From Bosea sp. 685 (GTDB lineage Bacteria > Pseudomonadota > Alphaproteobacteria > Rhizobiales > Beijerinckiaceae), in the NCBI RefSeq assembly GCF_031884435.1, contig NZ_CP134779.1, positions 186,001 through 250,000 on the forward strand: a stretch of 64,000 nucleotides of DNA. The letters run 5' to 3'. The notes beneath the pieces are model-generated. The model made no database searches. It worked only from the letters and a program-made list of their open reading frames with translations, and was not told the origin of the DNA. Shown here in pieces: positions 20,123 to 26,180 of the stretch (position 1 is the first letter of the stretch; each line of letters starts with the position of its first letter). A program made the translations under genes and the position numbers.

Positions 20123-20199
20123 GTCCCGGTAGCTCAGCAGGATAGAGCAACGGTTTCCTAAACCGTAGGTCAGGGGTTCGAATCCCTTCCGGGACGCCA
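20123..20199 (+). tRNA. tRNA-Arg (anticodon CCT)
   Basis: The acceptor stem GTCCCGG pairs with CCGGGAC, with discriminator G and encoded CCA. The D-arm GCTC/GAGC, anticodon stem ACGGT/ACCGT with loop TTCCTAA (anticodon CCT), and T-arm AGGGG/CCCTT with TTCGAAT are all present. Its 3' end is the attachment site of the island that follows. Confidence 0.97.
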
Positions 20200-20205
20200 T
20201 TTTCC
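20183..20205. other. attL: left direct repeat at the tRNA-Arg 3' end
   Basis: 23 bp spanning the T-arm/acceptor 3' half of the tRNA, CCA and six further bases (TTTTCC follows GACGCCA with one shared A). It is identical to 26158-26180. Confidence 0.9.
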
Positions 20206-20271
20206 GAATTTTCTACCGATCTTTGGCAAGTTGCCCTTCCAGACATTTCCCAGGTTATCGCTGAGGATAAT

Positions 20272-20583
20272 ATGATCTTGGACGACGAGGGCGCTATCTC
20301 TGAGATCAAGAGGCGCGCGGATCGGCTGCAAAAGTTGGCCGCCGAGGCGTTCGATTGGCCGTCCAAGGAGGCGGCGAATCGCATGTTGGGAGAATGCCGG
20401 GCGTTCGAACGGGGGCTGCCGCAAAAGTTCGGCAACGTCACGAGCCAGATCACCTATCTAATGGAAGCCTTCCGCATGATGACGAAGGCGAGCTTCTCGA
20501 TCAGCGACGCGAGAAACGCCGCACGCACGGCGTTCGCCAGGATCGACAATGCGCTGGGTATCCACGAGCGAGCAAAATCGTGA
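20272..20583 (+). CDS. Hypothetical island protein, helical
   Basis: 103 residues, not recognised. GAGGA is four bases before ATG 20272. The sequence looks all-helical, with heptad-like spacing in EIKRRADRLQKLAAEAFDW, and has no signal peptide or TM segment. It is the first gene of the island, and the next gene on the strand starts 38 bp after its stop. The position suggests a regulator or an antitoxin-like partner of the next gene, but nothing in the sequence proves it. Confidence 0.6.
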   Translation: MILDDEGAISEIKRRADRLQKLAAEAFDWPSKEAANRMLGECRAFERGLPQKFGNVTSQITYLMEAFRMMTKASFSISDARNAARTAFARIDNALGIHERAKS

Positions 20584-20621
20584 ACTGAAGGGTGCTGCCA
20601 ACTGGCCAAGAGGGACAATAG

Positions 20622-21080
20622 ATGAGGTTATGGGAGCACACTCTGGCAGAGGTAACCGGCGGAGCGCAGCCGCAAGGCGCCGATCCTGGAAGCAGTGGTC
20701 ATGTGTATCCATTTCATCTCGTTACCGTCGTTCCCGTTAGCCACTGCCCTCGCTATGCGACAGCAATGATCGACATGACGGGTGCCTCGTTCGCGCACCA
20801 AGCGCTTTTGAGGCTGGAGGGATCTAAGTGGGTCTCCGTCGGCGGATATCTGGATGACACTATTGAACTAGATCCAAGCGCGCGCGGCACCGGAATGGCC
20901 GAAGAGCTTTTGGTTCGGTGCGCAGAGCATCGATCTGCACCGCTATCCAAGTCCTTTTCAGAGCGCGGATTTAAGCTGGTGGAGAGGGCTCATCGCCTGT
21001 CCGTGGAGAGTGCTCTTGCTGCCAAACTTCCAGTTCCCGACGCTGTCCTAGCCGATTATCCCGATCTGAAACGAATTTAG
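20622..21080 (+). CDS. Hypothetical island protein with weak GNAT-like motif
   Basis: 152 residues. IELDPSARGTGMAEELLVRCAEHR (about 85-108) resembles the GNAT motif A (R-G-x-G-x-A followed by a helix), preceded by a beta segment WVSVGGYLDD. The rest has no recognisable hallmark. It could be a diverged acetyltransferase, and then possibly a GNAT toxin paired with the small helical protein just upstream. That reading is inference and I would not rely on it. The next gene begins 6 bp later. Confidence 0.5.
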   Translation: MRLWEHTLAEVTGGAQPQGADPGSSGHVYPFHLVTVVPVSHCPRYATAMIDMTGASFAHQALLRLEGSKWVSVGGYLDDTIELDPSARGTGMAEELLVRCAEHRSAPLSKSFSERGFKLVERAHRLSVESALAAKLPVPDAVLADYPDLKRI

Positions 21081-21086
21081 TTCAGG

Positions 21087-23601: not shown

Positions 23602-23906
23602 GACCAGCTCCTTCTGTGCCGAGCAACATATCTCTGCGGCTCCGCATGCGTCTTCGCAAGCAAGAGCGGGGGCGCTTCGCCAGAACCCCGCCTAGGGTTC
23701 CTTGCGCATGATCCTGCCCCGCTCGCGGTGCCATCCCCGCGCCTGCCCCCAGAACTGGCCTCGCCTTCGGCCATCATCGCCTCACACCTCCGGGTGGACT
23801 GAGCGTCGGTGGCCGGTTGCTGACCGAGACAATGATTTCGATCGTATCTTGAGCCGATCTGGCATTGCGGCGTCCTATCTTCAGATAATCTTTCGGAAGA
23901 GAATAT
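23602..23906. other. Island intergenic region
   Basis: 305 bp between two minus-strand genes; it becomes AT-rich toward the right. I see no terminator, repeat or convincing ORF. The lipoprotein promoter should lie here. Confidence 0.4.
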
Positions 23907-25181
23907 CTATTCCGCTTTTCCAGCCCGCTTTAAAGCTTTCCGATCGAATTCAATTTGATGCCCCGCGAGATTAATTTTTGCGTGAGACGCTTGACCGAGC
24001 AAGGCCGAAGCGAGTTGATCGACGGGGTTCAGCCCGGCGGCCGGAGTTTCTTCGCGCCCGGCGAATAGATTGCGACCAATCGCTTCAAGCATCTTGTCGG
24101 GCATCGCGTCCTCACCGGCTTTCTTCCATTCGAATGCCGTTTCTACAACCCAGCTTGCGCGATCTATATCCAGTTCTAACTCCTTCAGGCGGAACTCGAC
24201 ATCAGCGTGCCGCTCAAACCAGCGGTTCATCCAGTTGATGTACCAAGTCGCTATGACGACGCCGACGAACGTTAGGCCAAGCGGCTTAGCCAAGAAGAGA
24301 GCATAGGGCCAGCCGTCATTAGGGGGTGTCTGGGAAGCGAAGAGGACGACACCGGCAATCACCACGACCAACACGACTGCAACCGCCCAATGGATAGGCG
24401 TCCTGAGGCCCTTGGTTCCGGCTGTGAGGCCAAAGGCGGTCTTGTATTCGGCCAGCTGAACCTTCAGTTCTCTGCGGATATCGCGTCGAACGTGGGTGTT
24501 CTGACGGTCATCGAGTTCCTTCGCCCGCTCATCCAATTCCTGCCGCTGCACTGCGACCGATTGCCTTTCGCCGTCGAGGTCCGCGACGGTCGTTGCCCGT
24601 AGCGCGTCGGTTTCTTCAATCAACTTCTGACGGCGCTGGTCAAACTCTTCCTGAAGCTTTGCTTGCTGGGCGCCATGCCTTTCAGCCATATCCGTGAGCG
24701 TCTGTTCGAGGCGCTCGACCATAGCAACGTGCGACGCAACTGCTGCTTCAGCGGGGCCGAGATCATCAGTCCCACCCATCGGCATCGGCAGACGCTTGTT
24801 GATCAACTCGATAATCGTCGCGACCGCGATCGGGTCGTTTGCCTCCTGTGAGGCAGGGCTCACCTCGATGGTGTCCCAGCTTGGAGAGTGAATATGTTGA
24901 AGGCCATGGCCGTGCGGATTGGGGACGAAAATTCCGCGAGTGTAGGTTACGGCAACTATTGGACCGTGGCTCGACACGATCCTTAACGTATGCAACTTCT
25001 TTTTGGTGAGCTGCTCGAAAAGTGACTGATTGTCCGTCCGTGTGTAGCCACGGGGTGCGCCGCGCAGATGGATCGAACACGGATTGAAGCCGTGCTCCTG
25101 CATGAGTTCATCGAACAAGCTGATGATTGTGCGGTCATTCGCTGACGGCACACGAAACGCATTTTGGACGTTAGATACCAT
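23907..25181 (-). CDS. Coiled-coil two-TM protein of unknown function
   Basis: 424 residues, not recognised. Residues 1-130 form a mixed alpha/beta domain (for example KKLHTLRIVSSHGPIVAVTY). Residues 150-245 are a long charged coiled coil rich in Glu, Gln and Arg. TM1 is at 264-283 and TM2 at 293-315, followed by an amphipathic C-terminal region with RLKELELDIDRASWVVETAFEW. The plan of cytosolic sensor-like domain, coiled coil and paired TM helices is common among membrane effectors of phage-defence genes, but no domain family can be named. Its GC is lower than that of the core genes. Confidence 0.6.
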   Translation of the reverse strand: MVSNVQNAFRVPSANDRTIISLFDELMQEHGFNPCSIHLRGAPRGYTRTDNQSLFEQLTKKKLHTLRIVSSHGPIVAVTYTRGIFVPNPHGHGLQHIHSPSWDTIEVSPASQEANDPIAVATIIELINKRLPMPMGGTDDLGPAEAAVASHVAMVERLEQTLTDMAERHGAQQAKLQEEFDQRRQKLIEETDALRATTVADLDGERQSVAVQRQELDERAKELDDRQNTHVRRDIRRELKVQLAEYKTAFGLTAGTKGLRTPIHWAVAVVLVVVIAGVVLFASQTPPNDGWPYALFLAKPLGLTFVGVVIATWYINWMNRWFERHADVEFRLKELELDIDRASWVVETAFEWKKAGEDAMPDKMLEAIGRNLFAGREETPAAGLNPVDQLASALLGQASHAKINLAGHQIEFDRKALKRAGKAE

Positions 25182-25397
25182 GGTGGCCCCCTCGCCTCAA
25201 AAGTTTCTCTGTGCACATCAAGCCAATCTTCATATGTAGGGGAAAGCTCAGTGCACCGCGCTACGCAAAGATTGCTGTGGATGCCCACCGCTTGGCGCAG
25301 TCCGGTAATGACGAGGCGTCGGCGCAACGAAGCTGGGGTCAAATCTCACTTGCGTGACAACTCAAAATGCTGCTCCTGGATGCGGGTTTATGAACCG

Positions 25398-26117
25398 TCA
25401 GCAAGATCCGGGGCCGGCACCGCCTGAGGTGGTCGCGCTCATCGGATACGCAGCGAGACCTACGGCAACGGAACGTAAGATCGCCCATGTCTCAGCAGAA
25501 ATCGTTTCACGTATTTTTGAGAGGTTCTGTCCAGCGAAGAACGGCAGATGTTGAAACGGAATGCCCCGGTGGTGGCATTCGGCTTCAAACGCGCGAGCTG
25601 ATCGCTCCAAGCTTGCGGTAAAGCCGGATAGAAGGACGGCCTTCACCCGATTGATGAACACCTCGTGGCTGAAAACGCGCCTTATGTGAGCTTCAAGGTA
25701 CGCCGTTGGTATAGCGAGGCGTTGTGAAACCTTATTGCGCACCGCGTTATCGATGCCGTGTGGCAGAGCGTCTGCGAAGATGAGGGGAGATACTCCTCGC
25801 GCAGCGACAAGAGCCTTAAAGCCCTTGGTATCGATCGAAGGGGCTGTGGCGGTTCCCATCACGCCATACGCGCCATCCCAGAACGGCGATCCCGCTCGTC
25901 GGTTGCCCACGACCCTCTTGTAGAAGTCATAGGGACCCCAAGCGTCACTCACTGGGCTTGTACCGTTTGGCTCTCGCCCGACAACAAGGACCAGAGGAAG
26001 ATCGCTGAGGTGAGTGATGCCATAGCTTATTAGGCATGGATGCGTGCCTTCGGCAGGATTTTGCATGCTTCCCCACTCCCGAAGGAACCTATCGCATAAG
26101 AGGCAATTGACGGTCAA
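25398..26117 (-). CDS. Uracil-DNA-glycosylase-like protein (tentative)
   Basis: 239 residues from TTG; an ATG at codon 18 is the alternative, but it would remove the NCLLC cysteine pair. PLVLVVGREPNGTSP (about 41-55) resembles the UDG-superfamily water-activating loop (G-x-x-P-G). PLIFADALPHGI and the later IPFQHLPFF could be the central and Leu-loop strands. Key catalytic residues cannot be confirmed, so the family is tentative. It lies just inside attR. UDG-fold proteins in islands may excise modified phage bases, which fits a defensive reading. Confidence 0.4.
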   Translation of the reverse strand: MTVNCLLCDRFLREWGSMQNPAEGTHPCLISYGITHLSDLPLVLVVGREPNGTSPVSDAWGPYDFYKRVVGNRRAGSPFWDGAYGVMGTATAPSIDTKGFKALVAARGVSPLIFADALPHGIDNAVRNKVSQRLAIPTAYLEAHIRRVFSHEVFINRVKAVLLSGFTASLERSARAFEAECHHRGIPFQHLPFFAGQNLSKIRETISAETWAILRSVAVGLAAYPMSATTSGGAGPGSC

Positions 26118-26157
26118 AAACCGCTCATTTTACTGACTTTCGAGGGCGTTACACCGC

Positions 26158-26180
26158 TCCCTTCCGGGACGCCATTTTCC
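26158..26180. other. attR: right direct repeat of the island
   Basis: An exact 23-bp copy of 20183-20205, including part of the tRNA-Arg T-arm, the acceptor 3' strand and CCA. The rest of the tRNA is absent here. Confidence 0.9.

What the first reader, a model, noticed from the sequence alone, without database searches (positions are those of the whole stretch)
20123..26180. tRNA-Arg(CCT) island with exact 23-bp att repeats but no integrase
The 3' end of an intact tRNA gene is repeated exactly at 26158-26180, and the 6 kb between carries an Xis-like HTH protein, a TA pair and accessory genes. An excisionase without an integrase implies loss, or mobilisation in trans by another element's recombinase.
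Basis: partly seen in the sequence, partly recalled or inferred. Interest (0 to 1): 0.72.

Follow-up and report, generated by a model that had tools for sequence, protein, structure and literature searches.

The report
Decayed tRNA island without its integrase
A 6-kb block of foreign genes sits behind a tRNA gene in a Bosea-genus bacterium, with both insertion scars intact but without the enzyme that inserts such blocks; relatives show the empty site, and one shows a sister block that still has such an enzyme, so this is most likely an ordinary stranded remnant.

Summary
Observation confirmed. The last 17 bp of an intact tRNA-Arg(CCT) plus 6 bp recur exactly at 26158-26180; the 17-mer occurs twice in the 6.8-Mb genome. 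Two close relatives have the empty site, flanks meeting in one 23-bp copy; a third carries a different 3.7-kb island there. The island is GC-poor and holds HigBA, an Xis-like protein, a protein with a predicted uracil-DNA-glycosylase fold and other cargo. No integrase or remnant was found.

The site is a Bosea hotspot: of 10 islands with exact repeats, 7 carry an integrase near one end, 3 (this one included) show none. The right att arm resembles that of G036, whose island keeps a 630-aa DUF6538-type integrase beside the tRNA. The orphan Xis belongs to a different, phage-type xis-int cassette; the left arm matches nothing found. Best reading: a composite, decayed element that kept attL and attR but lost its integrase, CIME-like, probably of prophage origin. 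Mobilisation in trans is not excluded; no close helper was found in this genome. Known kind of object.

The parts
20123..20199 (+). tRNA-Arg(CCT), intact; integration target whose last 17 bp recur at the far end of the island
20183..20205 (+). left copy of the 23-bp core (attL): 17 bp of tRNA plus TTTTCC
20206..26157 (.). island, 5,952 bp, 58.2% GC, absent from G001 and G008
20272..20583 (+). 103-aa ORF next to the tRNA, no family; place where a tRNA-proximal integrase would lie (as in G036)
20622..21080 (+). 152-aa ORF; its C-terminal end (mostly the last ~30 residues) matches 20 viral-contig loci; perhaps a truncated phage gene
21087..21359 (+). Xis/RDF-like winged-HTH protein, 90 aa, orphaned from its integrase
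21646..21924 (+). HigB-type toxin of a toxin-antitoxin pair
21950..22261 (+). HigA antitoxin
22385..23098 (-). 237-aa protein of phrog_11791, unknown function
   Evidence: E 2.4e-18
23221..23601 (-). 126-aa protein whose gene is related to one in many Bosea genomes and to a second copy in this genome (C2:78134, 78% DNA identity over 167 bp); lipoprotein by eye
23907..25181 (-). 424-aa protein, coiled coil and membrane segments by eye; no family over its cut-off
25398..26117 (-). 239-aa protein with a predicted uracil-DNA-glycosylase-like fold, beside attR
26108..26157 (+). right att arm, related to the arm of the integrase-bearing island of G036 and, more weakly, of G433
26158..26180 (+). right copy of the 23-bp core (attR)

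Best explanation
This is a decayed, composite genomic island at the 3' end of tRNA-Arg(CCT). Shown: exact attL/attR cores, empty site in relatives, no integrase found, an island in G036 at the same tRNA with a related right arm and an integrase. Inferred: an element with a DUF6538-type tyrosine integrase (as in G036, whose island also carries a phage tail gene) inserted at the tRNA and restored its 3' end; a second element or a rearrangement supplied the left end and a phage-type xis; deletions then removed the integrase gene(s), leaving cargo (HigBA, UDG-like protein and others) stranded between intact att cores. HigBA may help to keep it in the chromosome. In its present genome it should not excise by itself; it could move only if an incoming element brought an integrase for these sites, which is how a cis-mobilizable element (CIME) works.
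For: Exact 23-bp repeat and empty sites. G020 carries another island at the same tRNA with an N-terminal integrase stub. Genus survey: of 67 genomes (own included) 59 hold the 15-bp core; 10 have two same-strand copies on one contig; 7 of these 10 have a PF00589 match between the copies and within about 2 kb of one end (6 over the cut-off, G036 below it), 3 have none (G000, G020, G433). The two smallest islands (3.7 and 6.0 kb) lack an integrase; the seven with one are 13.4 kb or more. Right arm against G036: 88% over 69 columns including the core, E 1.6e-17 in a set of 15 loci; 85% over 53 bp in the search of 67 genomes, E 8.2e-10. The G036 protein has DUF6538 (38.5 bits, cut-off 27), Phage_integrase (22.2 bits, cut-off 27.1) and phrog_1 integrase (E 5.9e-23); a Lambda_tail_I gene lies in the same island. 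The Xis relative is directly 5' of an integrase in 5 of 9 loci found through the xis, and an xis relative lies beside the integrase in 9 of 11 genomes found through the integrase. Such integrases match phrog_1 at E 4.2e-26 to 9.4e-29 in 5 of 5 tested. Fold of the Xis-like protein: best Foldseek hit is the RdfS excisionase 8dgl, E 0.013.
Against: No integrase pseudogene is left in the island, so loss is inferred from relatives, not seen. The left arm matches no other island (the best hits, E 1e-4 and weaker, are pieces of about 20-50 bp at other places). The core extends 6 bp past the tRNA, whereas G020 and G006 share 17 bp and G023 16 bp; neither plain integration by a G036-type integrase nor simple decay predicts this. 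The G433 right-arm match is short (50 columns with the core) and did not reach E 0.01 in the search of 67 genomes. G433 lacks an integrase match although its island is 39.3 kb, so size does not explain everything. In 4 of 9 xis-found loci no such integrase follows. PF00589 scores G036's and most xis-linked integrases under its cut-off or not at all, so counts made with it are lower bounds.
Confidence: 0.72

Rival explanations
1. Non-autonomous element (hitcher) that never carried, or no longer needs, its own integrase and is excised and inserted in trans by the integrase of other tRNA-Arg(CCT) elements.
For: Both att cores are perfect; its right arm resembles that of an integrase-bearing element at the same site; three of ten islands at this site show no integrase; a second Bosea genome has a 6.6-kb block at tRNA-Leu(CAA) with a related UDG-like gene and no integrase found.
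Against: None of 396 other family genomes examined showed more of the island than HigBA, the 126-aa gene or the HTH gene (two candidates per genome were scored), so no family of such elements is seen. No close helper integrase in this genome: nothing like the xis-linked integrase at E 1e-20; of its seven PF00589 proteins the closest to the G036 integrase is about 30% identical and lies near tRNA-Thr(GGT).
Confidence: 0.13
2. The block came in by homologous recombination in the flanks (for instance from a Bosea strain already carrying it), so the integration event lies in another lineage.
For: The 6 bp beyond the tRNA match the native flank at both ends, as if the ends had been shaped in this lineage or a near one; the 126-aa gene has relatives across Bosea.
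Against: No donor found among the Bosea genomes searched. It does not change what the island is.
Confidence: 0.08
3. One of the unassigned proteins (the UDG-like, the 424-aa or the 103-aa protein) is an unrecognised recombinase, so the island is autonomous.
For: The UDG-like gene lies next to attR, a usual place for an integrase; a relative lies in another block behind a tRNA without an integrase found.
Against: The predicted fold is closest to uracil-DNA glycosylases; of its 14 loci in named genomes only L176 has a tRNA whose 3' end recurs outside a tRNA gene within the stretch read.
Confidence: 0.03

Closest known systems
Cis-mobilizable elements (CIMEs), defined in PMC5704250 (passages read) as elements that lost integration and transfer genes but kept attL and attR
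   Same: attL and attR kept, integrase and transfer genes not found, at a tRNA 3' end that is a hotspot
   Different: CIMEs were defined as decay products of ICEs/IMEs; the integrase-bearing relative here (G036) looks like a prophage remnant, and the ends here seem to come from different elements
Integrase-bearing islands at tRNA genes as collected by Islander (PMC4383910, passages read)
   Same: tDNA target, displaced tDNA fragment, exact end points
   Different: Islander requires an integrase gene, so an island like this one is outside its definition
Island of Bosea genome G036 at the same tRNA-Arg(CCT) (L192)
   Same: same target and related right att arm
   Different: 13.9 kb, has the DUF6538-type integrase beside the tRNA, a left arm shared with G020, different cargo
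Excisionase RdfS of ICEMlSymR7A (PDB 8DGL; PMC11963761, passages read)
   Same: small winged-HTH fold; [quoted passage not shown]
   Different: low sequence identity (about 20%); in relatives the Bosea gene is often next to a phage-type integrase

Membership tests
tRNA-integrated genomic island | intact tRNA at one end, exact direct repeat of its 3' end at the other | tested here: met
tRNA-integrated genomic island | empty site with a single core in relatives | tested here: met
   G001 and G008
tRNA-integrated genomic island | integrase gene in the island (required by Islander) | tested here: not met
CIME | attL and attR retained | tested here: met
CIME | integration and transfer genes absent | tested here: met
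   no integrase, relaxase or secretion family among the 10 ORFs scanned (9 of the island and the first one beyond it)
CIME | derived from an ICE or IME by deletion | tested here: inconclusive
   relative G036 has an integrase and a phage tail gene, so the ancestor may be a prophage
CIME | mobilised after accretion with an incoming element | not testable with these tools
   needs mating or excision assays
Excisionase / recombination directionality factor | gene next to a tyrosine integrase in relatives | tested here: met
   5 of 9 loci found by xis; 9 of 11 genomes found by integrase, 3 of these 9 with weak xis matches
Excisionase / recombination directionality factor | HTH_17 / excisionase profile | tested here: inconclusive
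   PF12728 19.7 bits, cut-off 27; phrog_66 E 1.6e-4
Excisionase / recombination directionality factor | winged-HTH excisionase fold | tested here: inconclusive
Excisionase / recombination directionality factor | stimulates excision at its att sites | not testable with these tools
   needs an excision assay
HigBA toxin-antitoxin | both profiles over cut-off, genes in tandem | tested here: met
   PF05015 44.7 bits (cut-off 27), TIGR02607 74.4 bits (cut-off 47.7)
Phage satellite (PICI-like) | own integrase plus replication or packaging genes (features recalled, from no call) | tested here: not met
   none among the 9 island ORFs scanned
Uracil-DNA glycosylase superfamily (25398-26117) | fold | tested here: inconclusive

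The most novel reading that the evidence does not exclude
tRNA-Arg(CCT) of Bosea hosts a standing population of integrase-less islands that share the right att arm of an integrase-bearing element and are moved in trans by it, so that cargo circulates as a parasite of a site-specific prophage or island at its own attachment site.
Probability: 0.1. Interest if true: 0.5.

Novelty: new member of a known kind. Interest (0 to 1): 0.3.

Why it matters
It gives a clean example, ordered by relatives, of how a tRNA hotspot turns integrating elements into stranded cargo: empty sites, islands with an integrase, one with an integrase stub, and this one with none, all at one tRNA in one genus. Such islands fall outside island finders that require an integrase (Islander, passages), so they are probably under-counted. 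The related right arm makes the question of rescue in trans testable with one integrase.

Tried and rejected
Chance repeat: rejected, since the 17-mer is found twice in the genome and sites empty of the island exist.

Integrase remnant in the island: none. tblastn hits to the window at E up to 1 lay outside the island, except one over the HTH gene in another frame (L106 query, E 0.30). With the G036 integrase (E up to 5) one hit lies over the tRNA itself and the others outside the island.

The xis-int cassettes of relatives as the autonomous form of this island: not supported. L105-L107 end upstream of another gene (porin-like by eye) and L105-L112 contain no tRNA-Arg core; L170 lies at tRNA-Gln. 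Of the 9 genomes with an xis relative beside the integrase, 3 are weak (27-31% identity, L171-L173) and one pair is divergent (L169); of the two others, G078 showed no xis relative and G190, matched at a contig edge, was not fetched further. Five such integrases tested have no Pfam match over its cut-off and were named through PHROGs.

UDG-like gene as marker of a class of integrase-less islands: not supported; in the 14 loci of the genome-contig scan only L176 has a tRNA whose 3' end recurs outside a tRNA gene, and 2 have a match to my integrase profile.

Viral contigs: no relative of the UDG-like protein or the 103-aa ORF, none of the G036 integrase. 13 viral contigs hold the 17-mer; 8 have it in a tRNA-Arg context by a simple motif, 5 have an integrase match, and none showed the island's arms. 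Phage and plasmid records: no record covers 80% of the query; the listed rows show only HigBA and tRNA matches, or none annotated (20 of 107 plasmid and 20 of 259 phage records listed).

Arm-type repeats inside the island ends: a single shared 10-mer and no clear set. PADLOC: nothing convincing. The paper searches listed no paper on islands of Bosea at this tRNA; I saw only the top rows of each listing.

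Full report
OBSERVATION. ARAGORN finds one tRNA in the window, tRNA-Arg(CCT) at 20123-20199, confirmed by Rfam. The string TCCCTTCCGGGACGCCATTTTCC lies at 20183-20205 and 26158-26180 and cannot be extended. Its 17 tRNA bases occur twice in the genome of 6,795,213 bp, and the reversed pattern does not occur. Of the 17 repeated 23-mers of the window it is the only one outside a tandem array. The interval of 5,952 bp has 58.2% GC, against 62.6-68.0% in 93 windows of the same length outside it.

EMPTY SITE. In G001 and G008 the left flank (to base 20205) and the right flank (from 26158) meet with exactly one 23-bp copy. In G020 the same two flanks enclose a different island of 3.7 kb. The genus is Bosea: the contig of G323 has the same length and match as a contig of Bosea sp. 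67-29 in a scan of named genomes. In a search of 397 genomes of the family (own included) 44 others had matches, each a piece covering HigBA, the 126-aa gene or the HTH gene; two candidates per genome were scored.

INTEGRASES. PF00589 finds seven in the genome; none is in the island. Two look like XerC/D (my reading), one is on contig C1, and four lie within about 2 kb of tRNA-Thr, -Asn, -Glu and -Gly genes. None is close to the integrases found at tRNA-Arg(CCT) in relatives. PF00589 misses some integrase types, so an unseen one elsewhere in the genome is possible; in the island itself tblastn with 16 queries of several types found none.

THE HOTSPOT. A search of 67 Bosea genomes for the 15-bp tRNA end found it in 59; 10 have two copies on the same strand of one contig, 3.7 to 70.3 kb apart. 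PF00589 matches lie between the copies in 7 of the 10: tRNA-proximal in G061, G006, G348 and G036, at the far end in G063, G023 and G022 (G036 below the curated cut-off). None is found in G000, G020 and G433. For G433 my own profile also found none in the 36 of 39 kb read. G020 keeps an N-terminal stub and G034 a shorter one, both beside the tRNA; G034 has only one copy of the core in its genome, so it is not among the ten. G001, G013 and G030 hold further copies of the 15-mer on other contigs.

THE SISTER ISLAND. The sequence just inside attR of the window (26108-26157) resembles that of G036 (88% over 69 columns with the core, E 1.6e-17) and, more weakly, that of G433 (84% over 50 columns with the core, E 3.3e-7); these E-values are for a set of 15 loci. 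In a search of the arm over 67 genomes only G036 passes E 0.01 besides the window itself. The G036 island has a 630-aa protein with DUF6538 and Phage_integrase domains beside the tRNA, a Lambda_tail_I gene and a resolvase. G020 has the same left arm by eye and a 66%-identical stub of this integrase over 130 aa; its right arm is of the G006 type by eye; the G034 stub is 38% identical over 66 aa. The window's left arm matches none of them. Ends at this site are thus exchanged between elements, and the window's island appears to be such a composite.

MECHANISM. Shown: exact cores, empty site, no integrase found, a related right arm on an integrase-bearing island at the same tRNA, stubs of this integrase type at the same tRNA in two other genomes. 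Inferred: integration by a DUF6538-type integrase, later joining with or replacement by another element that supplied the left end and the phage-type xis, and deletion of the integrase genes. The result should behave like a CIME: inert alone, potentially movable with a helper. The definition of CIME is taken from passages of PMC5704250; that many elements need helpers is discussed in PMC11389934 (passages).

UNEXPLAINED. The core is 23 bp here, but 17, 17 and 16 bp in G020, G006 and G023. The six extra bases equal the native flank, which an attP like that of G036 would not supply.

VERDICT. A real, precisely bounded tRNA island; the kind is known. Interest is modest and lies in the series of states at one hotspot and in the testable question of rescue in trans.

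Noticed in passing
L176:4502-11223 (Bosea sp. 67-29, contig NZ_MKSQ01000026.1): A second block without an integrase found: 6,637 bp behind tRNA-Leu(CAA), 16-bp exact core, 58.2% GC against about 67%, with a relative of the window's UDG-like gene and a Schlafen AlbA_2 protein.
   Followed up: partly
L036 (G020), between the repeats: The 3.7-kb island of the close relative G020 holds an integrase stub and one large gene for a 780-aa protein with a weak AAA_16 match; a candidate defence gene by its look.
   Followed up: partly
L190/L191 (G433:C1:811248-850590): 39.3-kb interval between two cores at tRNA-Arg(CCT) with no PF00589 match, a right arm like the window's and HigB and HigA matches.
   Followed up: partly
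20200-20205 and 26175-26180: The repeat runs 6 bp (TTTTCC) past the tRNA into what is native flank in relatives; unexplained by an attP like that of G036.
   Followed up: partly
23221-23601: This island gene is related to a gene in many Bosea genomes and to one at C2:78134 of this genome, and it lies in the GC-richest part of the island (63.9%), so part of the cargo may be of Bosea origin.
   Followed up: partly
L203:7168 (G013:C9): A 3' fragment of a tRNA-Arg(CCT)-like gene, with differences, lies away from the tRNA on another contig of G013; perhaps the far end of another island.
   Followed up: no
L121, L106, L112, L169, L170: A family of phage-type integrases that PF00589 hardly sees (no Pfam match over its cut-off in 5 of 5 tested) but PHROGs phrog_1 does; integrase counts made with PF00589 alone miss it.
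   Followed up: partly
55230-55310: Tandem array of a 17-bp unit, 4.7 copies, 92% matches.
   Followed up: no
G000:C2:5018000, 2312889, 948178, 6573708: Four further integrases of this genome lie within about 2 kb of tRNA-Thr(GGT), tRNA-Asn(GTT), tRNA-Glu(CTC) and tRNA-Gly(GCC): probably other islands.
   Followed up: no
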